From the NCBI RefSeq assembly GCF_037031225.1, contig NZ_JAYEZN010000001.1, positions 1,984,001-2,048,000 of the forward strand: DNA of 64,000 bases, read 5' to 3'. A model generated the notes under the pieces. The model was not told the DNA's origin. It made no database searches and was given only the letters and a program-made list of their open reading frames with translations. Each line of letters opens with the position of its first letter. Position 1 is the stretch's first letter. The position numbers and the translations under genes were made by a program. This stretch comes from Halorientalis sp. LT38 (GTDB lineage: Archaea; Halobacteriota; Halobacteria; Halobacteriales; Haloarculaceae). Positions 3,961 to 24,062 of the stretch are shown in pieces.

Positions 3961-6900
3961 ATGTACATCGAGTGCCAGGTTCGGACAATGACGGTGTCGG
4001 ACCCGATCGCGCGCGACCGACTCCCCGAGACGGTCGTCTACTACGACGACGACTTTCCGGCCGCGCCGGCCGAGCTGCGGCGGGGGATCGAGGACGCGTC
4101 GTCGCTGTCCCTCGCCGCGTTCGAGTCGCTTTCGGGTCGCGGCGAGTCCGCCGGGTCCGACGAGGCGCACCTGACGCTCGTGTTCACCGAGCGGGTGCCG
4201 GCTGACGCGGCCGCGCTGACTGCCGGGCGGGCCATCTGGGTCACGACCGAGGCGGCCGTCGTGACCGCGGGGCTGGACGCCGGCGCGACCGACGTGTTCC
4301 ACTGGTCGCCGGCCGACGGCTGGGACGTGCTGGCAGCGAAGCTCGGCCACCGGCTGGACGGGGTCGGGGGCCCGAGCGCCACCGACGACCACGCCGTCCC
4401 CGACCGGGCGCTCCAGCGGATCAGCGACGGGGTGCTGGCACTGGACGACCGATTCCGGATCACCTACCTGAACGACGCGATGGCGGCACTACTCCGGGAC
4501 GCCGACGGTGACGTCCTTGGGGACAGGCTCTGGGACCGCCTCCCGCCGGCGGTGACGGAGGACCTGCGACCGGCCCTCGAACGCGCGATGGACGCGGGAG
4601 AGACCGTCACCACGGAGTTCCAGGCGCCGGCGACGGCGCAGTGGTTCGAGGTGACGGCCTACCCCTCGGCGGCGGGGCTGTCGCTGTACGGCCGGGAGAT
4701 CACCGAGCGCAAACAGCGCGAGATCCAGCAGGCCCGGTACGAGCACCTCGTCGAGACCGTCGGGGACGCGGTCTACCTCCTCGACGCCGAGGGCCGGTTC
4801 ACCTACGTCAACGACGCGCTCTGTGCGATGACGGGCTACGACCGCGACGACCTCCTCGGGTCGTCCGTCCACATCATCAAGGACGACGGGACAGTCGCGG
4901 AAGCCGAGGACGCGCTGCGTGACCTGCTCCGGGAACAGGCCGACAGCGACGGGATGCCGATCGCCAAACTGGACGTGGAACTCGTCACGGCCGACGACGG
5001 GACCGTCCCCGCCACGGACCGGATGACGCTGCGCCCGCTCTCCGAAGACGGCGAGTTCACGGGGACGGTCGGTACGCTCCGGGACGTGAGCCGACAGCGC
5101 CGCCGCCATGACGTCCTCTCGGGCATCCTCGCGGCGACCCAGGACATGATGGCCGCCACGACGACCGACGAGGTCGCGCGGCAGGTGGTCGACACCGTCG
5201 TCGACGTCTTCGGGTTCGACCTGGTCGCCGTCCACGAACACGACGCCGAGACCGACCGTCTGGTTCCCGTGGCCACGTCCGACGGCGGCGACGAAACCTC
5301 GACCGAGCGGCCGGCCTACGCCCTCGAAGAGGGGCCGGTCGGAACCGCCTACACCGAGGACCGCCTCGTCGTGCAGGAGGCCCGCTCCGGGCTGGACGAC
5401 TGGGACCGCGGCGGCGTCGAGGTCGGCGGCTACTGCCCGATCGGCGATACCCGCACGCTCAGTTTCGGCACGCGTGACGAGGCGGGGTTCACCGACGACG
5501 ACGAACGGCTGATCGAGTTGCTCGCCGAGACCGCCGCCGCGGCCTTCGAGGGGGTCACTCGCGAGGAGGAGCGCCGGCGCTACGAGGCCGTCATCGAGGC
5601 CGCCGAGGACAAGCTGTTCACGCTCGACGACGACGGCCGCATCACGCTCGCGACGGAGCAGTTCGCCGAGAGCGTCGGCGCGGACCGCGAGGCGCTTGCC
5701 GGCCGGGAGATCGGCGAGTTCCTCGCCGACACCGAGGCGGCCGCCGCCGTCGCGGACCTCGAGACCGCCGCGGACGTCGAGACCGATCTGCGAACCCGGG
5801 ACGGCGAGGCCGTCCCCAGCCGGATCCGGACCGCCCGCTTCTCCAGTCCGTACGGGGACGGCGTCGTCGGGACGGTCCGGGACCTCTCGGCGCTGCGGTC
5901 GGCCCAGCAGGCGGCCTCGCGCAACCGCCAGCGGTTCACCGAGCTGTTCGAGACGCTCTCCGACCCCGTCGCCGACGTCGAGTACGGCCCCGACGGCGCG
6001 GTCGTCAGCCGGGCGAACGCCGCCTTCGCCGCCCTGTGTGACGAGCGGGACCGCTCCCTCGTCGACCGGCCGCTGGCGGCGGTGCGCCAGGCGCTGCCGG
6101 AGTCCATCGCGGCCGCCCTCGACCCCGTCACGTCGCCCGGCGCGAGCGTCGAGACGGCGGTGAGCACGCAGACGGGCGCCGAGCGCAAGCGGTTCGTCCT
6201 GAAGACGGTGCCCTACGAGAGCACGGACGGTCAGCGGGCCTTCGTCGTCCTCACGGACGTGACGGACCTCGCCCAGCGCGAGACCCACCTGCAGGTGCTC
6301 CACCGCCTGCTCCGGCACAACCTCCGCAACGAGACGACGGTCATCCAGGGGTACGCGGAGGCGATCGTCCAGCGGGAGACGAACGCGGAGATCGGGGACT
6401 TCGCCCGCCAGATCTTCGAGGCGAGTTCGTCGCTCGTCGAGGCCGCCGACACCGCACGGACGATCCAGCGCGTCCTCGAGATGGACGCCGAGGACGTCGA
6501 ATCGGTCCCGGTCGAGCGTGCGGCCGAGCAGATCGACGCCGACGTCCTCGCGGATTACCCCGAGGCCGACGCGACGCTCGCGAACGAGGCGACGGGGACC
6601 GTGTCGTTCAGCCACCACCTGCTGGTCGGCATCGCGGAACTCGTCGACAACGCCGTCGAGCACAGCTCGACGAGCAGTCGGACGGGGTCCGACGACGCTA
6701 TCGAACACGTGGGCGGTGACGCTCCCAGCGTCGCCGTCGAACTCGCCGACGCGCCGGACTCGAACGCCGTGTGTCTCCGCGTCAGTGACGACGGCCCCGG
6801 GATGCCCGAGTCGGAGTGGGAAGTCGTGGCTGGCGAGCAGGAGATCACGCAGCTCCAGCACACCCAGGGGCTGGGCCTGTGGCTCGTCCGGTGGGTCGTC

Positions 6901-9359: not shown

Positions 9360-9450
9360 GCCGAGGGTCCACGCAGCCCCGCAGCGACTCGATTTCCGGA
9401 AACTGAGAACTGTCCGTCGCTTGAATGCCGTCCGGACCCATCGTCGAGAC

Positions 9451-10248
9451 ATGAACCCGCTCCAGCAGTCGGTGTCCGACCCCGCCGCGACGGTCGCCGT
9501 CGCGCGGGCTCTCAGCTACCTGACCGTCGCGGTCGCCGCGGGGTGCCTGCTGTGGTATCTCAGACGCTACGCCCACCAGGTCCTCGCCGCCCCCTACCGG
9601 ACGCGGTGGCGCTACCTCGCCGTGGGCGTCGGCGCCGTCGCCATCTACGGCCTCGCCGGACTGGCCGAGACCGCCGGCGTCGCGCCGGCCGCCGCCTTCC
9701 GCCGCGGCGCGACGGTCTTTGCCTTCCTGTTCGCCGCCGTCGGCGTGCGCGCCGTCCACCGCTCCGTCGACGGCGCCCCGCTCCTGCCCGACGGGACGCT
9801 CCAGTGGCTCGGCCCCGCCGTCGTCGCCGCATTCGTCGCCACCTGGTGGCTCCTCTACCTGATCGCGGCCGCGCCGGCGCTCGCCGCGCTCGAAGTCGGC
9901 GGCCTGGTGCTCGCCACCGCCTACACGCTGTACCACGCCGTCGGCACCGTCCGGGCACAGGAAGGGACGAGCATCGCGGCCTTCACCCGCCAGTTCACCC
10001 CCGCACTGCTCGCGCTGGCCGTCGTCGCCGTCGCCGACCACGCCGCCGTGCTCTCGCTGCCCACCGCAGCCGTCGGCGACGGCGTCGCCCTCGTCGGGAC
10101 GGTACTCACGGGCGCCTTCCTGTTCACCACCGCCGTCGCCATCAGACAGCAGGGCGGCGAGGTCCAGCGCATCTACGACCCCACCACCTGGAGTCGCGAC
10201 CGACCCGAAGACCGCCGCCGCGGGGCCGACGACCCCGGCGCCGACTGA
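9451..10248 (+). CDS. Uncharacterised multi-pass membrane protein
   Basis: 265 residues with about seven hydrophobic segments, for example SYLTVAVAAGCLLWYL, YLAVGVGAVAIYGLAGLA, AVVAAFVATWWLLYLI and ALLALAVVAVADHAAVL. It ends in a charged tail (RDRPEDRRRGADD) expected in the cytoplasm. The layout is like 7TM sensor modules of haloarchaeal signal proteins, but no kinase or other output domain follows. A TTG start at 9421 is possible; ATG at 9451 is preferred. Function unknown. Confidence 0.7.
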   Translation: MNPLQQSVSDPAATVAVARALSYLTVAVAAGCLLWYLRRYAHQVLAAPYRTRWRYLAVGVGAVAIYGLAGLAETAGVAPAAAFRRGATVFAFLFAAVGVRAVHRSVDGAPLLPDGTLQWLGPAVVAAFVATWWLLYLIAAAPALAALEVGGLVLATAYTLYHAVGTVRAQEGTSIAAFTRQFTPALLALAVVAVADHAAVLSLPTAAVGDGVALVGTVLTGAFLFTTAVAIRQQGGEVQRIYDPTTWSRDRPEDRRRGADDPGAD

Positions 10249-10551
10249 GGGACTAGTTCACACAAACGACAGTTTGAGTCATCGACAGGTCCGTTATCCC
10301 CCCGTCCGACGGCAGCCGTGGGCAGGTGTCATTTCACACCACCGCGCCTGTCCTTGCTGCCACCAGCCCGTCCCCGGACTCTCATGGAGGTTTTCCGGGG
10401 ACGGCCACTGTTTCGACGACGAGGCGACTCTCCGGTGGACGGATCGCCCCGCAGTCGCCGCTGAGCGGAGTTCGGCGGTGAGTTACGGCAGGATAGTCCA
10501 TCCTGGCGGTAAATGTCAGAATTTCTAATCTTTGGGCTTGCTTGTCGCCCG
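10249..10551. other. Intergenic region holding the island's left boundary
   Basis: About 300 bp. The only firm element is the 13-bp direct repeat at 10494-10506 that matches the 3' end of tRNA-Gln. A forward frame with a Cys-rich start (CPCCHQPV) exists at 10274-10528 from a TTG codon. It has no recognisable family and is left uncalled. Composition changes from chromosomal GC-rich to AT-richer just after the repeat. Confidence 0.5.
10494..10506. repeat. Island attachment-type repeat, distal copy
   Basis: TAGTCCATCCTGG, identical over 13 bp to the tRNA-Gln 3' end (acceptor and start of the T arm, reverse strand) at 14380-14392. Identity stops abruptly on both sides. Confidence 0.7.
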
Positions 10552-11112
10552 TTACGGGTGTCCGTCTGAGTCGGCCGCGTACGCCTCTCCGAACTCCGAG
10601 AAGTGCCTCACAAGGGTCTCCAAGGTGTCCTCGATTTCTTCAGCCGAACTGACGTGGTCATAGAAGGCGATGTTGGAATCGTATGGGTTTTCTGATGTTT
10701 CCACCGACCAATCGCCGGCACGAGTCTGTTCAACGACCCGGTCATCACTGGCCGACTGGGCACCCTTTACCTTGTATCCGAACGCCCGGAGCGCCCCGTC
10801 GACATCGGTTCGGTTGTACTCTGTGGGTGGCATCCAGTAAAGGTGGACGTTCAGCCGTTGGTTGCTATCCGGGGCTCGAGGCCCTTTCATTGCGTGGTTG
10901 ATTCGGTGAGTAGCAAGTCCACTACTCGGGCTTTGGTTGGTCCTCACACTAAGCCCAGTACTCGAATCGAACAGGCCGGGCTGTTCGTCGACCATTCGCT
11001 GATCGAACTCGTGCAGTATTGCTTCGATCTCGTTCTCGAATTGCTTGATTAGTCGAAGCGCTTTCAGATAGCGATCGCTCTGGAGGCCCTTTGTGAGGAA
11101 TTCCTCACTCAT
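10552..11112 (-). CDS. Uncharacterised partner of predicted nuclease (186 aa)
   Basis: Second gene of a two-gene unit; its ATG lies inside the end of the upstream nuclease gene with an 8-bp overlap (ATGAGTGA), so translation is probably coupled. The first 45 residues are an amphipathic helical stretch (YLKALRLIKQFENEIEAILHE) suited to a coiled coil. The rest is mixed and ends in an acidic helix (SAEEIEDTLETLVRHFSEFG). No enzymatic motif was recognised. It could be an immunity factor, a specificity subunit or a structural partner of the nuclease (inference). Confidence 0.7.
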   Translation of the reverse strand: MSEEFLTKGLQSDRYLKALRLIKQFENEIEAILHEFDQRMVDEQPGLFDSSTGLSVRTNQSPSSGLATHRINHAMKGPRAPDSNQRLNVHLYWMPPTEYNRTDVDGALRAFGYKVKGAQSASDDRVVEQTRAGDWSVETSENPYDSNIAFYDHVSSAEEIEDTLETLVRHFSEFGEAYAADSDGHP

Positions 11113-12229
11113 AATCCATCCTCTCGCGCAGATATGTTAGTTGTTCTCCCAGGATTCTCGAAAGCGTGATTGGTTGAATCGTCTCGACAACGTTCGCTGG
11201 CTTAGCCATTCGATCGATCGTCGGATGTGGCTGAAACTTCATGAGTTGTTGCTCCGCGGCCGCACAGAAAAGGTATGCATTGGCCGCCCAATGGTCGTCA
11301 ACCGCTTCACCTTGGCGTAGGAGCGTTCGAATCGCTGTGGTCACGTCCTGCCAATACATTACGGAGACTGGACCGGCCGTTTCCCACTCAATTTGCAGTC
11401 CTTCTTTAGGATGGCGCCTGACTAATGGATCGACCTTTGACCGGAGACGGTCAATATTTTTCTTTGGTAGGAGGAGCGTATGAGTCCACTCCTGATCGGG
11501 GTAGTCGCGTTCGGTGAGCCGCGTCGTCTCCGCAGTCTTCCTGTAGTGGGTGTCGTCAAGTTTTACTTCGATTGAGAAACCACGATCAGGATAAAGAATT
11601 AGTATATCTGGTCGTCGAGAGCCTCCCTCCTCCTTCAAGAGCCGGTCCTCACGGATGACTTCATCTGGAACTAGACCCACGTCTTTATCAAAGAGTTCAG
11701 AGACTAACGCTGCGGACTGTCGCAACAGTCGCGCCAGCCAGTCCGACCATCCTTCTTCGTTGTTCGGCAAGAGCGGTCCCATGTCTTGGGTCAGCGCCGA
11801 CGCCAGCGGATCCGTTTCGAAGGGCGACTTCGAGCGCTTCCACCTCTCGTTGGATTGGTCCAACAGGTCGGCTACCTCGACGGCGGTCTTATAGCCAGTC
11901 TCGCTGTAGAGTTCCCACCACGGGTCAAGCATATGCCACCAGCCAGTCAGCCCATTTGTGACGAGTGTCCGCGTTGAGGCGACGCTGCGGGCGGGGTGCG
12001 ACGAGTCTGCATACGCCTGCCACCACGAATCGAGGTCTTCCCAGCAGTCAGCCAACCGCGCTACGTGGAGGGGTTGTGCCGAATCATGGCTTTGGGTGAT
12101 TGGCTGAGTCTGCGTGTGTGTCGACCACCACAGATCAAGCGCTTCCCAATCGTTCGGTTCGACCTCTACACGCACGCCTGATCTGGCGAAGGCGACCGAT
12201 AAAGTCGTTGGGGGGGAATCCACGGCCAC
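11105..12229 (-). CDS. Predicted PD-(D/E)XK nuclease with N-terminal tryptophan repeats
   Basis: 374 residues in two parts. Residues 20-110 contain three copies of a motif W-x2-LD-x-WW with exact 35-residue spacing (W28/WW34-35, W63/WW69-70, W98/WW104-105). Residues 135-260 hold a nuclease core: Asp208 in RRPDILIL and Glu221/Lys223 in FSIEVKLDD, the PD-(D/E)XK pattern, preceded by a helix EGWSDWLARLLRQ. The start is GTG at 12229, with a second GTG two codons on. The IS element begins 75 bp upstream and probably sits in or beside its promoter. Anti-phage or anti-plasmid defence is a reasonable guess; no family name is recognised. Confidence 0.75.
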   Translation of the reverse strand: MAVDSPPTTLSVAFARSGVRVEVEPNDWEALDLWWSTHTQTQPITQSHDSAQPLHVARLADCWEDLDSWWQAYADSSHPARSVASTRTLVTNGLTGWWHMLDPWWELYSETGYKTAVEVADLLDQSNERWKRSKSPFETDPLASALTQDMGPLLPNNEEGWSDWLARLLRQSAALVSELFDKDVGLVPDEVIREDRLLKEEGGSRRPDILILYPDRGFSIEVKLDDTHYRKTAETTRLTERDYPDQEWTHTLLLPKKNIDRLRSKVDPLVRRHPKEGLQIEWETAGPVSVMYWQDVTTAIRTLLRQGEAVDDHWAANAYLFCAAAEQQLMKFQPHPTIDRMAKPANVVETIQPITLSRILGEQLTYLRERMDYE

Positions 12230-12295
12230 TTGTTACGAGCGTCAGGAACCCCCTATTGCCGCCACTCCAACCGCCTCAGCATGGGTGATATTGTA

Positions 12296-12303
12296 AGGGC
12301 CAA
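12296..12303. repeat. IS target-site duplication, left
   Basis: AGGGCCAA immediately left of the element; the same 8-mer follows the right end at 13839-13846. Confidence 0.8.
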
Positions 12304-12439
12304 GGCTCTGTTGAAATCCTCAGTCACAGACAGGTTGTTGAGGCCGTGCTGAATACAGAGCGCGTATCTCGCATAGCCGTGTGGAATGTACGGCGAAGCC
12401 TGCGATACTGATTCATATTAGCGCTGCATTGAGACGTAC

Positions 12440-12874
12440 ATGGACGAAATAATAACAGACATCGAGATAGACGGCTCGCCAGAGGCTGTGTGGGCTGTCT
12501 TGACTGATTTTGAGGCGTATCCCGAATGGAATCCAGCGATGGAGATAGATGGAGATGCGGTCGAGGGCGACCGACTGGAGGTGACGATGGATTACGAGAA
12601 TATGAGAAAAATGACGTTCAACCCGAGGGTTCTCGTGGCGGACAGACCGACCGAGCTTCGGTGGCAAGGTCGACTGTTTGTCTCCGGACTCTACGACGGC
12701 GAGCATCGATTCGAACTCACTTCGCTTGACGACGGTGAGCGGACGCGACTGACACAGGCTGAAACCTTTCGCGGGGTATTGGTGGGATTTATCAACCGTC
12801 GAATCGGCGACGATGTCGAGGCAGGATTCAATCAAGTGAACGAGGCCTTGAAGCGACGCGTGGAAAACAGCTAA
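12440..12874 (+). CDS. SRPBCC-domain protein, passenger inside the IS
   Basis: 144 residues with the START/SRPBCC helix-grip pattern: an opening strand EIITDIEIDGSPEAVWAVLT, FEAYPEWNPAM, RPTELRWQGRL, HRFELTSLDDGERTRLTQ and a C-terminal amphipathic helix. Such proteins bind hydrophobic ligands in a central cavity; no ligand can be predicted. It is tail-to-tail with the transposase gene, 52 bp between stops, and lies wholly within the terminal repeats of the IS. The start codon is 136 bp from the left IS end. Confidence 0.85.
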   Translation: MDEIITDIEIDGSPEAVWAVLTDFEAYPEWNPAMEIDGDAVEGDRLEVTMDYENMRKMTFNPRVLVADRPTELRWQGRLFVSGLYDGEHRFELTSLDDGERTRLTQAETFRGVLVGFINRRIGDDVEAGFNQVNEALKRRVENS

Positions 12875-12926
12875 TTTCGTTGCCGGATATGCTGCATACA
12901 CCTCTATATTCAGCAGTCGATTCCTC

Positions 12927-13784
12927 TCAGAATTCCGGATATTCGCACTCATCGTCTGAAATAGCCAGCCCTCGTTCCACATTGTGAACGACACACTTGA
13001 TGAGGAGTTCACGGAACTGCTTCCACCAGAGACGTGACCGCACAAAAGCTCCGAACTTCTGTTTGATCACCGCGTTGACTGTCTCGTTCATGTTTCGACG
13101 ATGGTAGAGGTCGCTGTCCAGCCGTGCATTCCACGCTTTGTGGAGTGAGGTGAACTCACGATGCTTAATAAGTGGTCGAATACCGTGGTCACGGGCGAGC
13201 TGCCGTAGCTTCTGGTCGTCGTATCCCTTGTCACCGGTCAAGACCGCGATAGACTGGACGTTCCGTTTCACTACTTGTGGCGCAATCTGCGTGTCGTGCT
13301 TCCGCGTTGTCGTCACGTGCACATCGAGAATTGCGTTGGTCGCTGTATCGACCAACAGCGTTGTTTTCAAGTGCTGGATGGTGAGGTTTGTTCGTTTCGT
13401 GTAGTGAGTTGAGGCATGCGCCCGCTCAAACCCGGAGGCATCGATACCGGTGACACCGTTCAGCGGCAAGTCCGCAAGCGAAACGTTCAGCAGAACCCGC
13501 CAGACGGCCATCTCCAAGCGGTCGAACGCCTTGCAGAGTGTCGAGGGTGCGGGAATCGAATCGAGACCGAGGGCGTCACAAATGCGGGGCATCTCGATAA
13601 GTTCATCAACGAGGTCGCGGTACGTGGTCGTCTTCTTCACCTTGAGACAGAGAAGAACGACGTGCTGGCGGAGCGTGAACCGCTTCCGAGAATAGCGTGT
13701 CGAAAACCGTGTAACAGCACGGCGAGCCAGCACCATAGCTCGTTCAACGAACCGGAGAAGTCGTGACTTCGGCAGGGAATCCAT
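12927..13784 (-). CDS. IS5-family transposase
   Basis: 285 residues, full length and uninterrupted. The DDE triad is visible: Asp115 in GIDASGFER, Asp185 in LTGDKGYDD and Glu234 in NMNETVNAVIKQKFG, with the YHRRNMNE spacing typical of haloarchaeal IS5 elements. The intact frame and matching target duplication suggest recent insertion and possible activity. The upstream gap of 54 bp to the right terminal repeat is normal for the family. Confidence 0.93.
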   Translation of the reverse strand: MDSLPKSRLLRFVERAMVLARRAVTRFSTRYSRKRFTLRQHVVLLCLKVKKTTTYRDLVDELIEMPRICDALGLDSIPAPSTLCKAFDRLEMAVWRVLLNVSLADLPLNGVTGIDASGFERAHASTHYTKRTNLTIQHLKTTLLVDTATNAILDVHVTTTRKHDTQIAPQVVKRNVQSIAVLTGDKGYDDQKLRQLARDHGIRPLIKHREFTSLHKAWNARLDSDLYHRRNMNETVNAVIKQKFGAFVRSRLWWKQFRELLIKCVVHNVERGLAISDDECEYPEF

Positions 13785-13838
13785 CCTGTCTCAGACTACT
13801 CGTCCATCATGTTTGCCCGCAAGGGTTTCAACAAGGCC

Positions 13839-13846
13839 AGGGCCAA
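13839..13846. repeat. IS target-site duplication, right
   Basis: AGGGCCAA directly after the right terminal repeat, identical to 12296-12303. Confidence 0.8.
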
Positions 13847-13877
13847 CTATTTGTGATTTGGAAATGCGTGTTATGGT

Positions 13878-14258
13878 ATGGCAATACAGAGTCTGCTCGA
13901 AAAGATACGGACGCAAGAAGCAGAGCTCTCGGATGAAGAGAAACTATGGATGATCTGTAGCGAGATATTCCCCCCGCTCACCGACGATAAAAATGGCTCA
14001 AGATATCGACTGTCTGTGGCAAACAGATTTATTCAACTTGAAGGATCGCCGGTTAAGCGGGATGACGATGGCGACGTGTACCGAACCGAAAATGAGAGCC
14101 GCTTGGATAGAGCACTAACACAGACTGCCGACGCTTACGATAGAAGCGAAGCTACGATTCGATCATTGTGCATCCATGATGTCTATAATGGAGAAAGTCA
14201 AACCGAACAGTTTCTAGAAGATTTACTGAAGGTTGAAGAGAAGTATAAAATGCTATAA
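13878..14258 (+). CDS. Uncharacterised island protein (126 aa)
   Basis: Not recognised. The N-terminal 25 residues are helical and charged (LLEKIRTQEAELSDEEKLW) and the C-terminus is a lysine/glutamate helix (FLEDLLKVEEKYKML), unusual for a haloarchaeal chromosome and consistent with foreign origin. AT-richer than neighbours. If the IS is removed, its start lies about 105 bp from the divergent start of the nuclease operon, so the two would share one promoter region. It could be a regulator or accessory of that unit (inference). Confidence 0.6.
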   Translation: MAIQSLLEKIRTQEAELSDEEKLWMICSEIFPPLTDDKNGSRYRLSVANRFIQLEGSPVKRDDDGDVYRTENESRLDRALTQTADAYDRSEATIRSLCIHDVYNGESQTEQFLEDLLKVEEKYKML

Positions 14259-14379
14259 TACTGAATTAGTACGGGTTTCTGTCCGTGGATATCCGCAGTA
14301 CCACCAAGAGACGTCCAAGATTTAGTATACGGACTCAGGCGGCAAAGGCAGTGCTATAGGATTAGAACGCCCGGAGAAG

Positions 14380-14392
14380 TAGTCCATCCTGG
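14380..14392. repeat. Island attachment-type repeat within tRNA-Gln 3' end
   Basis: TAGTCCATCCTGG, the tRNA-proximal copy of the 13-bp direct repeat; the distal copy is at 10494-10506. Confidence 0.7.
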
Positions 14393-14452
14393 ATTCGAAC
14401 CAGGGTCGAAGCCCCCAGAAGGCTTCAGGATTGGCCACTACCCCAATGGACT
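14380..14452 (-). tRNA. tRNA-Gln (CUG)
   Basis: Folds as a complete cloverleaf on the reverse strand. The acceptor stem AGTCCAT/ATGGACT has discriminator A at 14380. The anticodon stem AAGCC/GGCTT encloses the loop TTCTGGG, giving anticodon CUG. The T arm CCTGG-TTCGAAT-CCAGG is canonical. No intron, and CCA is not encoded. Its 3' end carries the island attachment repeat (14380-14392). Confidence 0.93.
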
Positions 14453-15229: not shown

Positions 15230-16041
15230 GCGTGGATCTGCAGGCGGCCTTCGACGCCGTCGCGGAGACGGGACCGCTCGTCAACTGCATCACCAACGAC
15301 GTGACGGTCAACGACGTGGCCAACGTCGTCCTCCACTGGGGCGGCCTCCCGGTCATGTCCGACGATCCCGGCGACGCGCCGGAGATGGTCGCCGGCGCGC
15401 AGGGCCTCCTCCTCAACATGGGCACCGTCTCCGAGGCGGGCCTCGAAACCTTCCTCGCCACCGGCGAATCGGCGATGGAACACGACGTGCCCATCGTCGT
15501 CGACCCCGTGGGCGTCGGCGCGACGTCGGTCCGGGACGAGGCGGCAGAACGGCTGGTGACCGACCTCGATCCGACGGTCATCAAGGGCAACTACGGCGAG
15601 ATCACGGCGCTGGCGGGCGAGACGGCCGACGTCCGCGGCGTCGAGTCGGTCGGTGAGTACGACGACATCGTCCCGACGGCGCAGGCGGTCGCCGAGGGCA
15701 CCGGGGCCGTCGTGATCGCCTCCGGCGTGACGGACGTGGTGGCGACCGCCGACCGCGCGTTCGAGGTCGATGTCGGCGACGCCCGCATGGGCGAGTTCGT
15801 CGGGTCGGGCTGTATGCTCGGCGCGACCGCGGCCGTCTTCGCCGGCAGCGTCGCCGACCCGCTGGACGCGAGTCTGGCCGCGACGGTCGCCTTCGGCCGC
15901 GCCGGCGAACGCGCCGCGGCGGGCGCCTACGGCGAGTTCGAGGGGCCGGCCAGCTACCGGATCGCCTTCCTCGACGCCACCGCGGGGCTCGACGCGGCCG
16001 AGGCCGCGTCCGACGCGGACCGGATCACGGAACTGGGCTGA
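15226..16041 (+). CDS. thiM: Hydroxyethylthiazole kinase
   Basis: ATP-dependent phosphorylation of the thiazole alcohol in thiamine salvage, feeding ThiE next to it. 271 residues of ribokinase-like fold with the family signatures NCITNDVTVNDVANV and PVMSDDP near the N-terminus, DPVGVGAT, IKGNYGEI, and the catalytic GSGCMLGA near residue 200. Second gene of the thiE-thiM pair with an ATGA overlap. Together they allow thiamine monophosphate formation from salvaged thiazole. Confidence 0.95.
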   Translation: MSVDLQAAFDAVAETGPLVNCITNDVTVNDVANVVLHWGGLPVMSDDPGDAPEMVAGAQGLLLNMGTVSEAGLETFLATGESAMEHDVPIVVDPVGVGATSVRDEAAERLVTDLDPTVIKGNYGEITALAGETADVRGVESVGEYDDIVPTAQAVAEGTGAVVIASGVTDVVATADRAFEVDVGDARMGEFVGSGCMLGATAAVFAGSVADPLDASLAATVAFGRAGERAAAGAYGEFEGPASYRIAFLDATAGLDAAEAASDADRITELG

Positions 16042-16057
16042 ACGACGCTTCCGATTA

Positions 16058-16112
16058 TTTCCTTCGTAGGTAATATTCTGGCACCAAAGTTTCCTTCGTA
16101 GGCAATTATTCT
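16058..16112. repeat. Two direct repeats at a convergent gene junction
   Basis: TTTCCTTCGTAGGTAATATT (from 16058) and TTTCCTTCGTAGGCAATTAT (from 16090) share the first 13 bases exactly and most of the rest, 32 bp apart. They occupy the 69-bp gap between thiM and the methyltransferase, reaching the methyltransferase stop. Possible transcript 3'-end signals; role unknown. Confidence 0.5.
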
Positions 16113-16815
16113 ACGTCTCTCCCGGTCGCGCCTCGATGGCGGTGAGCACGCCGAACAGCGCCGTCTCAGAGCGCTCGACGGACAGGTCCGCCTCGCGGAC
16201 GTGGGCCAGCGGCTCCTGGGTCAGCCGACAGCCCGATTTCTCGTAGTGGGCCGGCGCGCGCCAGTCGAGCAGTTTCGCCAGCGGTGCGGCGTCGCTCTGT
16301 CCGTGTTCGAGCAGCAGGAGGCGTCCGTCCGGGTCGCAGACGCGGGCCATCTCCCGGACGGCGGCCACGGGGTCCGGGAACGTACAGGTCGAAAAGGAAG
16401 AGACGACGGTGTCGAAGGCGTCGTCCGGGAACGCCAGTCGCTGGGCGTCCATCCGCTGGACCCGGCCGGACCGATCCAGGCGGTCGAGTTCCGCCCGGGC
16501 CTGGGCGAGCATCGCGGCGCTCAGGTCGACGCCGACGATTTCGCTGGCGTCGGTCAGATACCGGAAGTTCGGCCCGGTGCCACAGGCAACGTCGAGGACG
16601 CGGCCGCTCGCCCCCGCGAACTGCCGGCCGCGGTAGCGCCCGGCGAACAGGCGGTCCAACCACTGCCACCGCGCGACCTGCTCGGCCTTCTCGTCGTAGG
16701 TCGCTTCGATCTCGGCGACCGAGACCGCGTCGCTCCGGGACGGACGGTCCACGTCCGCGCCCCCCTGTTCGTCGTCCGGCCCCTCCGTCGGTCCGCTCGG
16801 GTCCGTCTGTGGCAT
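16111..16815 (-). CDS. Class I SAM-dependent methyltransferase
   Basis: 234 residues. Motif I VLDVACGTGPNFRYL (about residues 73-87), the acidic residue in EIVGVDLSAAML, then MDAQRLAFPDDAFDTVVSSF and MARVCDPDGRLLLLEHG give a UbiE/phospholipid-type methyltransferase. The first 35 residues are a disordered acidic extension. The substrate is not evident; relatives act on quinones, lipids or small molecules. Convergent with thiM; the two genes look unrelated. Confidence 0.85.
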   Translation of the reverse strand: MPQTDPSGPTEGPDDEQGGADVDRPSRSDAVSVAEIEATYDEKAEQVARWQWLDRLFAGRYRGRQFAGASGRVLDVACGTGPNFRYLTDASEIVGVDLSAAMLAQARAELDRLDRSGRVQRMDAQRLAFPDDAFDTVVSSFSTCTFPDPVAAVREMARVCDPDGRLLLLEHGQSDAAPLAKLLDWRAPAHYEKSGCRLTQEPLAHVREADLSVERSETALFGVLTAIEARPGET

Positions 16816-16916
16816 ACAGTCTCCCCTGGCCGTCTCTGGCCCCCGATGTCACGTAAAAGCATCGCGGGATCGGACGTTCCCCGGACTCCGTGCGAATCCG
16901 TGTTCGAGCCGGGCCG

Positions 16917-17210
16917 TCAGGTCTCCGCGCCGTCGCCCTGGGCCTCGACCTCGAAGTCGGTCAGTTCGTGGCCGTGGCGGGCGATCCGCTCGGCGACCTG
17001 GAACTTCTCCGGGCGGTCGAGGCGCTCCCAGTCCAGGTCCTCGGGCGGGGCGTCCTCGAAGCCCTCGAACGTCTCGAGGACGGCGGCGTTGACGAAGCGG
17101 GCGAACGCGTCGCAGATCTCGCAGGTGCGTGAGAGGTGCGAGACGTCGAACTCGCGAGTCACGGTGCTGTCGAGGCAATCGACACACCGGTACTGCTGTG
17201 TTCGGGTCAC
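16917..17210 (-). CDS. Small zinc-ribbon-like protein (97 aa)
   Basis: Starts with GTG (MTRTQQYRCVDC). Two cysteine pairs, CVDC (residues 9-12) and CEIC (30-33), form a likely zinc knuckle, followed by a helical acidic region (FVNAAVLETFEGF, RPEKFQVAERIARHG). The pattern is seen in many small haloarchaeal proteins of unknown role. No operon partner. Confidence 0.7.
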   Translation of the reverse strand: MTRTQQYRCVDCLDSTVTREFDVSHLSRTCEICDAFARFVNAAVLETFEGFEDAPPEDLDWERLDRPEKFQVAERIARHGHELTDFEVEAQGDGAET

Positions 17211-17310
17211 GACGGCGTTAGGAGCGCCACTCGGTAGTACCTGTGGGTTCGACCGCCAGCGCCGATTCGACCATCAATCTAATTACGGCGAGGAGTGTCA
17301 GCATTCAACT

Positions 17311-17490
17311 ATGCACGATCTCACGGGCGTCCAGCGGGACCGTCGCGCCGTGCTCGCGGGCCCCGCGGGCCCGATCGGGCCGGACGGCGACGGCGCTCGC
17401 CGCGGTCGCTCGGCAGACGGCCACGGGGCCGGCGACTGCGGGGGCGGCGTCGGGCCGGCGATCGACGGGACCACAGGCACGGGTGGGTGA
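17311..17490 (+). pseudogene. Possible remnant of PadR-like regulator
   Basis: The frame opens with MHDLTGVQRD and VLAG, resembling the first helix of haloarchaeal PadR-family regulators (MHDLTGFQRD...VLAG). It then turns into Gly/Arg/Ala-rich sequence with no PadR winged helix and stops after 59 codons. A frameshifted or eroded gene is the simplest reading. The resemblance covers only about 15 residues, so this is tentative. Confidence 0.3.
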
Positions 17491-17495
17491 TACAC

Positions 17496-17645
17496 ATGGA
17501 ATACGTACAGTCATCGAGCGGGAAGTGGCACAGGACGGACTGCCAGTACTCTCCGGCCGAGGACGAGCGCGAAGACGAGGTCGACCAGCTCCCGCTGGAC
17601 GCCGATCGGTGTCAGCACTGCATCGACTCCTTCGAGTTCGCGTGA
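17496..17645 (+). CDS. Small zinc-binding-like protein (49 aa)
   Basis: MEYVQSSSGKWHRTDC...RCQHCIDSFEF: His12 and three cysteines (C16, C40, C43) could bind one zinc. The middle is very acidic (EDEREDEVDQ), typical of a halophile. Starts 6 bp after the preceding remnant. Function unknown; called because composition and Cys/His spacing look selected. Confidence 0.55.
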   Translation: MEYVQSSSGKWHRTDCQYSPAEDEREDEVDQLPLDADRCQHCIDSFEFA

Positions 17646-17747
17646 GGGTCGTCCGGACGGCCGCACCGAGCGATCAGAGGCCGGAGTTATATTCTTTTTG
17701 TCACGTACGCCGGTCATACTGATACCCCGATCGCCCCTACGAGTGCC

Positions 17748-17984
17748 ATGGACACGTTCCACCTGTTCGTCGGGGTCCCCGGGGGACCAGAACTGCTCGT
17801 CATCCTCGGCATCGCCGTGTTGCTGTTCGGTGCCAACAAGCTCCCCGCGCTCGCGCGGTCGTCGGGGCAGGCGCTCGGCGAGTTCAAGAAAGGGCGCCAG
17901 GAGATCGAGACGGAACTCCGGGAGGCCGCCGAGGGTGAGTCGAACGCGGCCGACCCAGAGGACGCGGTGACCGAGACGGCCTGA
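17748..17984 (+). CDS. tatA: Sec-independent protein translocase TatA/E
   Basis: 78 residues. One N-terminal membrane helix (ELLVILGIAVLLFGANKLP) is followed by the amphipathic helix and hinge typical of TatA (LPALARSSGQALGEFKKGRQEIE), then an acidic tail. It forms the pore-type component that moves folded proteins across the membrane. Haloarchaea rely heavily on Tat export, and several Tat-type signal peptides occur in the gene cluster 2-7 kb downstream. A short T-run follows at 18000-18004. Confidence 0.92.
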   Translation: MDTFHLFVGVPGGPELLVILGIAVLLFGANKLPALARSSGQALGEFKKGRQEIETELREAAEGESNAADPEDAVTETA

Positions 17985-17999
17985 TCGAACCCGAGCGAT

Positions 18000-18004
18000 T
18001 TTTT
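18000..18004 (+). terminator. T-run after tatA
   Basis: Five T residues 16 bp after the tatA stop, in GC-rich context; archaeal transcription commonly ends at such runs. No strong hairpin precedes it. Confidence 0.4.
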
Positions 18005-18074
18005 CGGCCAGCAAGAACCACGAGAGCCGTCGCTGTGCTGTCTGCCAGTGTCCCGGAATCCGACGTCGGTGCGT

Positions 18075-18695
18075 TCAGTCGTCCCCGGCGAGTGCCCGCT
18101 CGCCCTCGTCGGGGGGTGTGATCGTGGTTTCCGGCGGCGCGGCGGCGGACCCGACGACTCGGCGACCGTCGCGCAGGGTGTGATATCCCCCGATGGCGGT
18201 GAACGCGAGCGCGATCAGGAGTGCGTACGCGAATCCGCCGATCCCGGCGAACGGGCGAACGCCCAGCGCCGCGATGGTGACGATGGCGGTCGTCACGCCC
18301 CCGAGCGCGAAGTAGAACTGGCTCCACGGGATGTCCTCGGCGGCCACCAGATCGAAGTAGATGTCGAACTGGTCGATCGTCTCCGTCAGCGCCACGACGC
18401 CGCGGTCGCTGTCGTAGGTCACGACGCCCAGCCGATCCATCTTCGGGAGATGGGTCTGGTGTAAGGCCGTGTACAGCCGCTTGCGCTCTTTCGGGCGGAC
18501 CTGCGACCGGTCGACGCCGTTCTCCCAGGCCGCGAGCTGTTCGGAGAGGTCGCGGATCGTCACCGGCTCGCCAACTCGTTTCAGATAGTGCAGGGCGTAC
18601 CGCCGTCGCCTGTTACTCAACGTCTCGAAGATCGTCTCCGTCGACAGAGACTCTCTGTCAGCCGCTGCTGGCTCTGCCGACCGCATTGTTGCCAT
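18075..18695 (-). CDS. Winged-helix regulator with C-terminal membrane helices
   Basis: 206 residues. An N-terminal winged-helix region of the haloarchaeal DUF7344 type (ETLSNRRRRYALHYLKR, VTIRDLSEQLAAWE, LYTALHQTHLPKMDRLGVV, TYDSDRGVVAL) is followed by two hydrophobic segments (FALGGVTTAIVTIAALGV, GGFAYALLIALAFTAIGGY) and an acidic tail. Probable membrane-tethered DNA-binding protein. The neighbouring gene at 18898 is a paralogue in the same orientation. A TATA box TTTAAATA (18728-18735) about 32 bp upstream implies a very short leader. Second Met at 18686 is possible. Confidence 0.8.
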   Translation of the reverse strand: MATMRSAEPAAADRESLSTETIFETLSNRRRRYALHYLKRVGEPVTIRDLSEQLAAWENGVDRSQVRPKERKRLYTALHQTHLPKMDRLGVVTYDSDRGVVALTETIDQFDIYFDLVAAEDIPWSQFYFALGGVTTAIVTIAALGVRPFAGIGGFAYALLIALAFTAIGGYHTLRDGRRVVGSAAAPPETTITPPDEGERALAGDD

Positions 18696-18727
18696 TGACC
18701 CACCCGACGTTCGATAGCACTTTTGAA

Positions 18728-18735
18728 TTTAAATA
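18728..18735 (-). promoter_or_regulatory. TATA box of the winged-helix gene
   Basis: TATTTAAA on the reverse strand within an AT-rich stretch (18720-18790), about 32 bp before the start codon at 18695. The remainder of the 200-bp gap to 18898 is AT-rich with no gene seen. Confidence 0.55.
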
Positions 18736-18897
18736 CTTGCTGCTTTGTCCATCTGATTCAGATATATATTTCTATATGCTCGTGTATTAATGACGATCGT
18801 GCATAGAAAACCGCTTTCCCTGTTCGTTCGGTTGTGATTATCGCCAGACATGTGATTATCTCACACAGTGGGCGCCTCTCCGCCGTGAAAATCCGGA

Positions 18898-19497
18898 TCA
18901 GCGGAGCCTGGACAGCAGCCCACGCAGGCGACCGCGCGTGCGCCCCAGGAGCTGGTAGCCGGTCGAGAGCGCGAACACTGCCAGCGTTCCGGTCGCCGGG
19001 ACCAGCGGATCGACCGCCCCGAACCCGGGGATCGCCGCGAGGGAGGCGACGACCGCGAAGAGGCCGCAGATCCCGAGCGCGCGGTAGTACTCGCCCCAGG
19101 TCACGCCGAGTGCGTTGACGGTGTCCATGTACCGGTGGAGGTGGCGGCTCTCCGGCCGCGGTCGGACGAGCTTCCTGTCGGGATCGTACTCGACGAGGCC
19201 GAACTCGTGGAGTTTCGGCAGGTGCGTCTGGTGAAGCGCGTTGTAGACGCTCTGGCGCAGGGGCCGGGGTGCGGGCGCGACGCCGGCCTCTTCGGCCGCG
19301 ATCAGCTCCGACAGCTCGCGCAGCGTCACCGCCTCGACCGGCCGGCCGGATCTGGCGCCGCCCAACGCGAACCAGCTCTCGCCCGACTCCGCCTGCCGCC
19401 GCCACAGCGCCGTCAGCGTGGCCCGGCGGCGGGCGTTGCCCAGCAGGTAGTAGACGTCCGATTCCGGGATCGACGCGTGCGAGAACATTGCGTTCAC
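18898..19497 (-). CDS. Winged-helix regulator with C-terminal membrane helices, paralogue
   Basis: 199 residues with the same layout as the gene at 18075: winged-helix region (LGNARRRATLTALWRRQ, VTLRELSELIAAEEAGV, VYNALHQTHLPKLHEFGLV, EYDPDRKLV), then two hydrophobic helices (LGICGLFAVVASLAAI, TGTLAVFALSTGYQLLG) and an Arg-rich end. NALHQTHLPKL is nearly identical to the paralogue. It is divergent from the surface-protein cluster starting at 19787, and its upstream region holds the repeated GGTACGG motifs, so it is a candidate regulator of that cluster (inference). Met4 is an alternative start. Confidence 0.8.
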   Translation of the reverse strand: MNAMFSHASIPESDVYYLLGNARRRATLTALWRRQAESGESWFALGGARSGRPVEAVTLRELSELIAAEEAGVAPAPRPLRQSVYNALHQTHLPKLHEFGLVEYDPDRKLVRPRPESRHLHRYMDTVNALGVTWGEYYRALGICGLFAVVASLAAIPGFGAVDPLVPATGTLAVFALSTGYQLLGRTRGRLRGLLSRLR

Positions 19498-19661: not shown

Positions 19662-19786
19662 GATCTTGCGTTTCAGGCCCTCAAACTGCGGAATTACTGC
19701 ATGAGTAAGTCCCCGACCCCCCTGGAGCAGGTAACCCGAACCGGGCCGACCCTGGGTGGGACGACCGGCGCGGGGTGGAAACCAAC

Positions 19787-20665
19787 ATGACAGACGACAA
19801 CCCGAAACTGTACGACGTGTCGCGACGGAAGATGCTGGCCGGGCTCGGCGCCATCGGCCTCGCCTCCGCGGGCGCGGGACTCGGTACCTCCGCGTACTTC
19901 AGCGACACCGAATCCTTCTCGAACAACACCCTCACCGCCGGGACCCTCGACATGAGCGTCACGGCCGACGTGGTGGCAGCCAACCAGTACTGGGTGGACC
20001 AGGGCGGCCTCGACGTCTCGGTCGTCGCCGACAGCGAAGATCCGATTCTCGGCCTCCAGGTCGACGACGTCAAGCCCGGCGACTGGGCGATCGTCTGCTT
20101 CGAGATCAGCGTCGGTGACAACCCCGGCTACGTGCAGGTCGCGACGGAGAACTTCACGGAGACCGGTGGCGCGAACCCCGAGCCCGAACAGGCCGAAGAG
20201 GGGGACGCCGACAACGACGCCGATCTGGGCACCGCCCTGCTGACCTCGGTCTGGCAGGCCTACGACGACAGCGGCGACCGGACCGGGCTCTCGACGCTCG
20301 ACCCGGTGTTCAACAACGCCAGCGATCTGCTGACGATCGACTACGCCGAACCCGACGAGGACGGCGTGGCCGGTCCCGACGCGCACTACACGAACGCGGT
20401 CGAGGCGAACGACGTCCTCTCGGGCGGGTACGTGGTCAAGGACGACAACGGCGACCCGATGATGGTCGGCAGCGACGCCGCGGGCGAAGACGAGAACGTG
20501 GCGGACACCTACGAGTTCTGCCTCCTGCTCGAACTGCCCTACGAGGTCGGCAACGAGATCCAGGGCGACGGACTGTCCTTCGACCTGGTCTTCGAGACCC
20601 AGCAGGTCCGCAACAACGACTCACCGTTCGCGAACGGGCAGACGAACACCACCTCGGGGAACTAG
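19787..20665 (+). CDS. TasA-like secreted surface protein 1 (SipW-type signal)
   Basis: 292 residues. N-terminal signal SRRKMLAGLGAIGLASAG then LGTSAYFSDTE, the SipW-dependent signal/cleavage style of TasA and camelysin relatives. The mature part begins SFSNNTLTAGTLDM, a hallmark of the family, then VDDVKPGDWAIVCFEI, and ends with PYEVGNEIQGDGLSFDL and VRNNDSPF. Such proteins assemble into extracellular fibres in bacteria, and related bundling pili are known in archaea. First of three tandem paralogues; the only one without a VWA insertion. Start ATG at 19787; an in-frame GTG at 19775 adds four residues. Confidence 0.85.
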   Translation: MTDDNPKLYDVSRRKMLAGLGAIGLASAGAGLGTSAYFSDTESFSNNTLTAGTLDMSVTADVVAANQYWVDQGGLDVSVVADSEDPILGLQVDDVKPGDWAIVCFEISVGDNPGYVQVATENFTETGGANPEPEQAEEGDADNDADLGTALLTSVWQAYDDSGDRTGLSTLDPVFNNASDLLTIDYAEPDEDGVAGPDAHYTNAVEANDVLSGGYVVKDDNGDPMMVGSDAAGEDENVADTYEFCLLLELPYEVGNEIQGDGLSFDLVFETQQVRNNDSPFANGQTNTTSGN

Positions 20666-20668
20666 ATC

Positions 20669-22096
20669 ATGAGTGACGACAACCAGCTATACGACATCAA
20701 CCGGCGGAAAGTGCTCGCGGGCCTCGGCGGCATCGGCCTCGCTTCGGCGGGGGCGGGTCTCGGCACTTCCGCCTTCTTCAGCGACACGGAAACGTTCCAG
20801 AACAACTCCCTCACCGCGGGGACGCTCGACCTGAAACTGGACTACAAGGCCACCTACGAGGGCGGCGCCGGCCGACTGGCGGCCATCCAGGAGAACTACC
20901 CGGACGCCCAGGATCTGGGCGACGGCGTCTACCTGCTCGACCAGGCGCCGAGCCCGGCCGACATGCAGGCGTGGGAGGACCTGGTCCAGGGCGAGGACTT
21001 CCAGTTCTGTTCGCCCGAGGCCGACGAGTTCCTCGTCAACGGCGACGGGATCCCGGTGTTCACTCTCGACGACGTCAAGCCCGGCGACTACGGCGAGGTC
21101 ACGATCAGCATCCACATCTGTGACAACCCGGCGTACCTTCGGCTGGGCGGCGAGATCGGCGAGAACGCGGAGAACGGCCAGAACGACCCCGAGATCGCGG
21201 CCGAAGGGGTAGACACCGACGGCATCGGCGAACTCGCAGAGGAGATCCAGGTCCGCGTCTGGTACGACGAGGACTGCGACAACGTCTACGAACCGACCGG
21301 CACCGGCGAGCAGCAGGAACTGGAAGTCGCGCTCGTGAGCGACGTCTCCGGGTCGATGGGCGGGGCGCCGCTGAACGCGCTGAAGACCGCCGCGGTCGAC
21401 TTCGTCAACAACCTCTCGTCGCCCGACGAGGCCGCCGCGATCTCGTTCAACTCGTCGGCCTCGGTCGACCAGGAGCTGACGACGACCTACGGGGACGTGA
21501 TCAACGCCATCAACAACTACACCGCGGGCGGGCAGACCTCGATCGCCGCGGGCGTCGCCGCCGGTGAGAACGAACTACTCAACGGCACGAACGCCACTCC
21601 CGGCGCGTCGAAGGTCATGATCCTGCTGAGCGACGGGAACTCGAGCAGTTCCGCGGCGATCTCGGCGGCCGACGCCGCCAAGGACGCGGGCATCCGCATC
21701 TTCACCATCGCGCTGGGCAACGCGAACACCAGCCTGCTCCAGCAGCTCGCGTCCAGCCCGGACGACGCGTTCGTCGCCCCCAACCCGTCCGACCTCGACA
21801 CGGTCTACGCCGAGATCGCACAGATCGTGCTCGCTGGCGAGCAGGTCATCGCCGAGGGGAGCATGAGCGACGTCTTCGCCCAGCTGTCCGAGGGCGTCCT
21901 GCTCGACGGGAACCGCCAGGAGGAGGGCGTCCAGCCCTACCCCGGCGTGACCACCCAGTGCATCGGCTTCGAGTGGGAACTGCCCTTCGAGGTCGGCAAC
22001 GAGGTCCAGTCCGACTCCGTCGCCTTCGACATTAGCGTCGAGGCCGAACAGAGCCGAAACAACGACGCGCCGTTCGGAGCGTCGCTGAGCGACTGA
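20669..22096 (+). CDS. TasA-like surface protein 2 with inserted VWA domain
   Basis: 475 residues. The same signal (NRRKVLAGLGGIGLASAG, LGTSAFFSDTE) and the NNSLTAGTLDL and DDVKPGDYGEV motifs as its neighbour. After VWYDEDCDNVY a von Willebrand A domain begins (residues about 218-400) with an intact MIDAS motif D225-V-S227-G-S229, TSIAAGV and LLSDGNSSS. The family C-terminus then resumes (WELPFEVGNEVQSDSVAFDI, EQSRNNDAPF). The VWA is thus inside the TasA-like fold. MIDAS domains bind divalent metal and a ligand, so an adhesive or matrix-linking role is likely. Starts 3 bp after the previous stop. Confidence 0.85.
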   Translation: MSDDNQLYDINRRKVLAGLGGIGLASAGAGLGTSAFFSDTETFQNNSLTAGTLDLKLDYKATYEGGAGRLAAIQENYPDAQDLGDGVYLLDQAPSPADMQAWEDLVQGEDFQFCSPEADEFLVNGDGIPVFTLDDVKPGDYGEVTISIHICDNPAYLRLGGEIGENAENGQNDPEIAAEGVDTDGIGELAEEIQVRVWYDEDCDNVYEPTGTGEQQELEVALVSDVSGSMGGAPLNALKTAAVDFVNNLSSPDEAAAISFNSSASVDQELTTTYGDVINAINNYTAGGQTSIAAGVAAGENELLNGTNATPGASKVMILLSDGNSSSSAAISAADAAKDAGIRIFTIALGNANTSLLQQLASSPDDAFVAPNPSDLDTVYAEIAQIVLAGEQVIAEGSMSDVFAQLSEGVLLDGNRQEEGVQPYPGVTTQCIGFEWELPFEVGNEVQSDSVAFDISVEAEQSRNNDAPFGASLSD

Positions 22097-22137
22097 GACT
22101 CCCGAACCCGGCGTTTTGCAGACACCAAACACATACC

Positions 22138-23844: not shown

Positions 23845-23931
23845 GCGGGTCGCGGCCGACCGTTCACGGACCGTTCACGGGGCCACCGTCTCGCGGTTTC
23901 GGAGCGAGACGCGCGGCCGGTGAGCGCGGGT

Positions 23932-23946
23932 GTACGGGCACCGTAC
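23932..23946. promoter_or_regulatory. Second copy of the GTACGG-N3-CCGTAC palindrome
   Basis: GTACGG-GCA-CCGTAC, identical in both arms and spacing to 19647-19661, located 117 bp upstream of the next start (24063) in a 218-bp gap. A related GACCGTATCGGTC follows at 23982-23994. It implies that the second half of the cluster has its own promoter under the same control. Confidence 0.6.
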
Positions 23947-24062
23947 CGGCGGTCGAGGACCGGGGGATCGGTCCGCAGGGTGACCGTATCGGTCGGCCAC
24001 GAGTCCATACCTATGCCGACAGGTAACCAGGAGAGACAGACGAACGACGCGGAGATTTCAAG

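What the first reader, a model, noticed from the sequence alone, without database searches (positions are those of the whole stretch)
10494..14392. Integrase-less mini-island at tRNA-Gln carrying a candidate defence unit
A 13-bp exact repeat of the tRNA 3' end bounds 3.9 kb of AT-richer DNA. Its core cargo is a predicted PD-(D/E)XK nuclease translationally coupled to an unrecognised partner, plus a small divergent gene. With no integrase it may be mobilised in trans, like a satellite. Small tRNA-bounded cargo islands are frequent homes of defence systems.
Basis: partly seen in the sequence, partly recalled or inferred. Interest (0 to 1): 0.75.

Follow-up and report, generated by a model that had tools for sequence, protein, structure and literature searches.

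The report
tRNA-Gln island with two-gene nuclease module
A small piece of foreign DNA inserted at a glutamine-tRNA gene of a salt-loving archaeon carries a pair of always-linked genes, a predicted DNA-cutting enzyme and an unknown partner, that recurs across salt-loving archaea, often near known antiviral genes, and is probably an undescribed defence system.

Summary
A 13-bp copy of the tRNA-Gln(CTG) 3' end bounds 3.9 kb of AT-richer DNA that four congeneric genomes lack. The same boundary, including a conserved 26-bp inner arm, occurs at tRNA-Gln in two other haloarchaea carrying the same gene pair. One is a 1.9-kb island with only the pair; the other is 19 kb with a tyrosine integrase and a complete type I restriction-modification system. 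So this is an integrase-less relative of a real integrative element.

The core cargo is two genes overlapping by 8 bp. A (11105-12175) is a PD-(D/E)XK nuclease preceded by three 35-residue W-rich repeats. B (10552-11112) has no recognisable family or fold. The pair was found only in Halobacteria, in 27 of 392 genomes of the order. B follows A with a 4- or 8-bp overlap in all 23 intact pairs examined, under purifying selection, in otherwise unconserved neighbourhoods that often hold defence genes.

A defence role is likely but rests on context. No activity is shown, and mobilisation in trans is untested: no homologue of the related integrase was found in this genome.

The parts
10494..10506 (.). 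Distal attachment remnant: 13 bp identical to the 3' end of the tRNA-Gln gene
   Evidence: exact match; expected 0.0004 per 64 kb; equivalents at L194:10077 (G058) and L090:8680 (G376)
10507..10532 (.). Inner arm of the element end, conserved in the three tRNA-Gln islands (CGGT....TTTCTAATCTT)
   Evidence: 18-21 of 28 bases identical pairwise; each pair reaches that score at only 1 of 15,300-18,973 positions
10552..11112 (-). Gene B, 186 aa, unknown partner; overlaps the end of A by 8 bp
   Evidence: ORF; B after A with 4 or 8 bp overlap in 23 of 23 intact pairs; no Pfam, NCBIfam, PADLOC or PHROGs family at E<0.01; AF2 pLDDT 74.5
11105..12175 (-). Gene A, 356 aa (GTG start inferred from homologues; frame open to 12232), repeat domain plus PD-(D/E)XK nuclease
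   Evidence: family alignment; model; fold matches
11861..12175 (-). Repeat domain of A: three 35-residue units with W..LD.WW at residues 10, 45 and 80
   Evidence: homologues carry 1 to about 5 units
11246..11770 (-). PD-(D/E)XK core of A (residues 136-310); invariant E140, R187, D190, E203, K205
   Evidence: invariant columns; pLDDT about 80 over most of the core except a loop at 178-186; R.BspD6I small subunit Z 8.8
12298..13844 (.). IS5-family insertion sequence with a passenger gene, inserted upstream of A; imperfect 23-bp terminal repeats at 12298-12320 and 13822-13844
12440..12874 (+). SRPBCC-domain (Polyketide_cyc2) passenger gene of the IS
   Evidence: PF10604 E 4.8e-16; other copies of this IS carry other genes at this place
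12927..13784 (-). IS5-family transposase
   Evidence: NF033579 E 4.6e-64, above cut-off
13878..14258 (+). Small opposite-strand gene, 126 aa, unknown; not associated with A-B elsewhere
   Evidence: 73% identical homologue in G066, none near A-B
14380..14392 (.). tRNA-proximal attachment core (3' end of the tRNA gene)
14379..14452 (-). tRNA-Gln(CTG), the integration target
   Evidence: ARAGORN; orthologous tRNA without the island in G002, G003, G005, G007

Best explanation
The island is an integrase-less member of a haloarchaeal integrative-element family that inserts at the 3' end of tRNA-Gln(CTG) through a 13-bp core (shown by sequence comparison). Its main cargo is a two-gene module, A-B, most likely an antiviral or anti-plasmid system. 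A is a PD-(D/E)XK DNA nuclease (superfamily well supported, cutting inferred). Its 35-residue W-rich repeats, variable in number and faster evolving, probably recognise the target or a partner (inferred). B is made in step with A by translational coupling (inferred from the overlap) and probably controls or targets the nuclease (inferred). On infection A would cut invading DNA or, failing that, the host's own (inferred).
For: Island: empty sites in four congeners; three islands with the same core and arm; their A proteins form one supported clade (96/98) although the hosts belong to three genera in two families; the G058 island has a phage-type integrase, PF00589. Nuclease: invariant E140/R187/D190/E203/K205 in 24 homologues; PD-(D/E)XK matches. 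Unit: B beside A in all intact pairs, and only A and B recur in most loci. Function retained: dN/dS about 0.05-0.3. Context: next to a complete type I R-M system, a type IIG-like methylase, DrmE and HEC-05, a PsyrT/DpdF helicase, and type I-B cas genes on Halorubrum lacusprofundi pHLAC01. Patchy: 27 of 392 genomes. Decayed copies occur.
Against: No activity data. Enrichment of defence genes near the pair is suggestive only: at least 4 of 19 loci against 1 of 19 matched control loci with strong PADLOC matches, not significant alone. Several loci have no known defence neighbour. No PADLOC model matches A or B. The model of A outside the core is poor and B has no convincing fold match.
Confidence: 0.6

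Rival explanations
1. A-B is a toxin-antitoxin-like stabilisation module: A is a toxic nuclease restrained by B, and it keeps the island or plasmid in the population. Antiviral protection would be at most a by-product.
For: Two coupled genes, on islands and megaplasmids; the minimal G376 island holds only A and B; decayed copies exist.
Against: The order A then B is unusual for an antitoxin (general knowledge); A is large with a variable repeat domain, unlike typical toxins; the best matches of its core are restriction-type and defence nucleases.
Confidence: 0.2
2. A-B is a restriction-type nuclease accessory to neighbouring R-M or other defence systems (for example cutting modified or unmodified DNA), not a stand-alone system.
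For: Closest fold match is a restriction subunit, R.BspD6I; neighbours include type I R-M and a type IIG-like methylase.
Against: No methyltransferase is a constant neighbour; only A and B recur, and the window island and the G376 island carry none.
Confidence: 0.12
3. A-B serves the element itself: the nuclease helps excision, integration or replication of the tRNA-Gln element, replacing the integrase.
For: The pair is the whole content of the smallest island; the three tRNA-Gln copies form a clade.
Against: About nine tenths of A-B loci are not at tRNA-Gln; the G058 island with the pair also has a normal tyrosine integrase; PD-(D/E)XK enzymes are not known for tRNA-site-specific integration (general knowledge).
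Confidence: 0.05
4. The 13-bp repeat is chance and the region is simply a decayed, horizontally acquired stretch next to a tRNA.
For: 13 bp is short; 240 bp outside the left repeat are also foreign to the congeners.
Against: Chance expectation 0.0004, and the same core plus arm recurs in two other genomes.
Confidence: 0.02

Closest known systems
tRNA-targeted archaeal integrative elements (for example SNJ2-type haloarchaeal elements; reviewed in PMC8371274)
   Same: [quoted passage not shown] a relative (G058) carries a tyrosine integrase
   Different: The window copy and the 1.9-kb G376 copy have no integrase; most of the 3.9 kb is A-B plus a later IS
PD-(D/E)XK restriction and defence nucleases (R.BspD6I subunits Z about 8-9; Hna, EcoT38I, Shedu, Cap4, LmuA at Z about 5-7)
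   Same: Catalytic core and invariant acidic/lysine residues
   Different: No sequence family match; fused to 35-residue W..LD.WW repeats in 1 to about 5 copies; constant partner B of unknown fold; most fold scores are middling
Two-gene nuclease defence systems (for example Hachiman, HerA-DUF4297)
   Same: A nuclease with an obligate neighbour, patchy distribution, defence neighbourhoods
   Different: B shows no helicase or ATPase match; neither protein matches a PADLOC model
pHLAC01 defence-rich plasmid of Halorubrum lacusprofundi (PMC10544981)
   Same: Carries an A-B pair (HLAC_RS16240/16245) close to type I-B cas genes
   Different: Short form of A with one repeat; annotated as hypothetical proteins; its contribution to virus resistance has not been tested as far as found here

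Membership tests
tRNA-bounded integrative island | tRNA 3' end duplicated at the far end | tested here: met
   13 bp exact
tRNA-bounded integrative island | related genomes have the same flanks without the insert | tested here: met
   G002, G003, G005, G007; 240 bp beside the left repeat also differ
self-mobile integrative element | encodes its own tyrosine integrase | tested here: not met
   none in the window island; no homologue of the G058 integrase in the host genome at E<=0.001; the G058 relative has one
PD-(D/E)XK nuclease superfamily | conserved D...(E/D)xK motif in a beta-sheet core | tested here: met
   D190, E203, K205 invariant; strands 191-194 and 198-204 in the model
PD-(D/E)XK nuclease superfamily | fold similarity to solved members | tested here: met
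   Foldseek E 5e-4, Z 8.8 with 2p14
PD-(D/E)XK nuclease superfamily | metal-dependent DNA cleavage | not testable with these tools
   needs biochemistry
antiviral defence system | member of a known system model | tested here: not met
   no PADLOC model at E<=1
antiviral defence system | association with defence genes | tested here: inconclusive
   clear at several loci, but counts against control not significant alone
antiviral defence system | protects cells from viruses or plasmids | not testable with these tools
   needs infection assays
type II toxin-antitoxin system | one gene toxic alone, neutralised by the other | not testable with these tools
   needs expression tests

The most novel reading that the evidence does not exclude
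A-B is an undescribed archaeal immune system in which a variable array of 35-residue tryptophan repeats sets what a PD-(D/E)XK nuclease recognises, with B, a protein of new fold, as its obligate controller. One lineage spreads on a tRNA-Gln element that can shrink to 1.9 kb.
Probability: 0.25. Interest if true: 0.8.

Novelty: new variant of a known kind. Interest (0 to 1): 0.57.

Why it matters
A 2026 survey (PMC12988326) notes that archaeal defence is poorly characterised and that nearly a third of archaeal genomes show no system beyond CRISPR-Cas and R-M. A two-gene nuclease module in about 7% of the sampled genomes of one haloarchaeal order, unrecognised by the four family libraries used here, would fill part of that gap. 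It can be tested directly: one copy sits on H. lacusprofundi pHLAC01, which is missing from the virus-sensitive laboratory strain ACAM34_UNSW. The three tRNA-Gln islands also give a size series (19, 3.9 and 1.9 kb) for how integrase-less cargo islands arise.

Tried and rejected
Pfam, NCBIfam, PHROGs and PADLOC scans of A and B gave nothing significant. Profile searches of PDB sequences gave only chance matches. No relatives in viral contigs or in the phage collection, so no sign of a viral origin. A phylum-level sample gave no homologue outside the order. The fold search of B gave no match at E<0.001. Membership of the 126-aa gene in the unit was rejected. The SRPBCC gene as island cargo was rejected because it belongs to the IS. 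A source for the 240-bp stretch 10255-10493 was sought and not found. For the models only the window and four search for related loci sequences were used, to keep to the stated input rule; this limits their quality. No 13-bp repeat was found in the 19-kb piece first fetched for G058; it lay in the next piece.

Full report
Observation. The window comes from a haloarchaeal chromosome; its genome shares a genus with G001, which is Halorientalis marina GDY88. tRNA-Gln(CTG) is at 14379-14452, minus strand. The last 13 bp of the gene, TAGTCCATCCTGG as read on the plus strand, recur exactly at 10494-10506 and nowhere else in the window; a Markov model expects 0.0004 such matches in 64 kb. The enclosed DNA is about 55% GC against about 70% outside.

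Empty site. In four congeners (G002, G003, G005, G007) the gene on the left (9421-10248) and tRNA-Gln with thiE on the right lie in the same order with about 470-590 bp between the left gene and the tRNA, against about 4.2 kb in the window. The insertion is therefore real. About 240 bp left of the left repeat (10255-10493) also fail to match: the congeners have another conserved stretch there. The replaced segment may be slightly larger than the repeat suggests, or a second event occurred next to it.

The same boundary elsewhere. Two other genomes carry A-B directly downstream of tRNA-Gln(CTG): G058, and G376, whose contig matches the record of Halobacteriales archaeon QS_1_69_70. Each has a displaced copy of its own tRNA 3' end at the far side: TAGTCCCGGGAAG at L194:10077 in G058, and TAGTCCCCGGGAAG (one extra C) at L090:8680 in G376. 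In all three the inner side continues CGGT, then TTTCTAATCTT or a close variant. Over 28 bp the arms share 18-21 bases pairwise, a score reached at only one position in each locus of 15-19 kb. The islands are 3.9 kb (window), about 1.9 kb (G376, only A and B) and about 19.3 kb (G058). The G058 island carries a tyrosine integrase (PF00589, L194:12989-14248), a DUF4268 protein, a NucS_C-domain protein and, next to A-B, a complete type I R-M system. Orthologous tRNA-Gln genes without A-B exist in G016, G044 and G070. In a maximum-likelihood tree of 32 A proteins the three tRNA-Gln copies form one clade (support 96/98; 0 of 500 label shuffles as clustered). This fits one element lineage that keeps its target while changing host. 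No homologue of the G058 integrase was found in the window genome or in G376 (82% complete) at E<=0.001, so the window copy looks stranded; mobilisation in trans is possible but unsupported.

Inside the island. Four features: B, A, an insertion sequence, and a small opposite-strand gene. The insertion (about 12298-13844, imperfect 23-bp terminal repeats) has an IS5-family transposase and an SRPBCC gene between its left end and the transposase. Related copies in other haloarchaea keep similar ends and the transposase but carry other genes there: GrpB, a TrmO-domain protein, a PHO4 transporter, a CAAX-type endopeptidase. The SRPBCC gene is thus a passenger of the IS, not island cargo. The 126-aa gene has a 73% identical homologue in G066 away from any A-B pair.

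The pair. A profile of A finds 27 of 392 genomes of the order and 30 of 391 in a class-level sample; all ten hits in a phylum-level sample are in the same order. B lies immediately after A in every intact pair examined, overlapping by 8 bp (13 loci) or 4 bp (10 loci). Of all neighbours, only A and B are shared by most loci. Copies with frameshifts, truncations or fragments occur (L043, L105, L106, L107, L108). dN/dS is about 0.05-0.3, and B changes less than A in the same genome pair (dN 0.014 against 0.096 in L093/L091).

Protein A. E140, R187, D190, E203 and K205 are invariant in 24 homologues. AlphaFold2 from five sequences gives a confident core only at about 136-310 (pLDDT mostly about 80), with the order helix, three strands, helix, strand; the rest is poor. 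Foldseek and VIA-align rank R.BspD6I subunits first (E 5e-4; Z 8.8) and then many PD-(D/E)XK nucleases, among them Hna, EcoT38I, FokI, Shedu and Cap4. Most of those Z scores are middling, but the motif and the consistency of the list make the superfamily assignment firm. The N-terminus holds W..LD.WW units 35 residues apart: three in the window, two in G376, one in the short forms, about five in L094. The repeat region is less conserved than the nuclease in all nine pairs compared. That fits a recognition domain but does not prove it.

Protein B. 186 aa; model pLDDT 74.5 with a long first helix and a mixed sheet. No fold match at E<0.001 and no family. With a five-sequence model, absence of a match is weak evidence of novelty.

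Context. Strong defence neighbours: type I R-M (L084); an N-6 methylase with Eco57I domain in H. marina GDY88; a PsyrT/DpdF-like helicase (L091); DrmE (L089) and HEC-05 (L095); and, around the H. lacusprofundi copy, a type I-B cas operon, a site-specific integrase and a DUF499 protein followed by a DNA methyltransferase. A matched control (same genomes, regions about 90 kb or more away) gave one match with E below 1e-60. With 19 loci a side this is suggestive, not significant. pHLAC01, which carries the H. lacusprofundi copy, is missing from the virus-sensitive strain ACAM34_UNSW; the authors assume that CRISPR explains the resistance of the type strain but note other systems (PMC10544981).

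Verdict. The island is real and one of a family. The pair is a good candidate for an undescribed haloarchaeal defence module of the PD-(D/E)XK kind. Shown: the island, the recurring boundary, the constant pairing, the nuclease superfamily, purifying selection. Inferred: DNA cutting, recognition by the repeats, control by B, antiviral role.

Noticed in passing
window 12298-13844; L168-L174, L181: An IS5-family element of haloarchaea that carries different passenger genes (SRPBCC, GrpB, TrmO-domain, PHO4, CAAX-type endopeptidase) between its left end and its transposase.
   Followed up: partly
window 14379-14452; L038 (G005) 4239-4417: The window and G005 share a variant tRNA-Gln with changes on both sides of the acceptor stem. 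In G005 the ancestral 3' end (AGTCCCCACAGGATTCGAACC) lies about 85 bp downstream of the gene, as if an element had replaced the gene and then been lost.
   Followed up: partly
window 10255-10493: Unique sequence where four congeners have another conserved stretch, possibly with a small zinc-ribbon gene; source unknown.
   Followed up: partly
window 19775-26940: Three tandem paralogues sharing a leader of the type SRRKxLAGLGxIGLASAGAGLGTSAxFSDTE, followed by what may be a signal peptidase; resembles a SipW-dependent surface protein cluster.
   Followed up: no
L096:10770-14727 and L097:11546-15332: Two A-B loci share a two-gene neighbour: an AAA ATPase (about 830-890 aa) with a 430-aa protein.
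   Followed up: no
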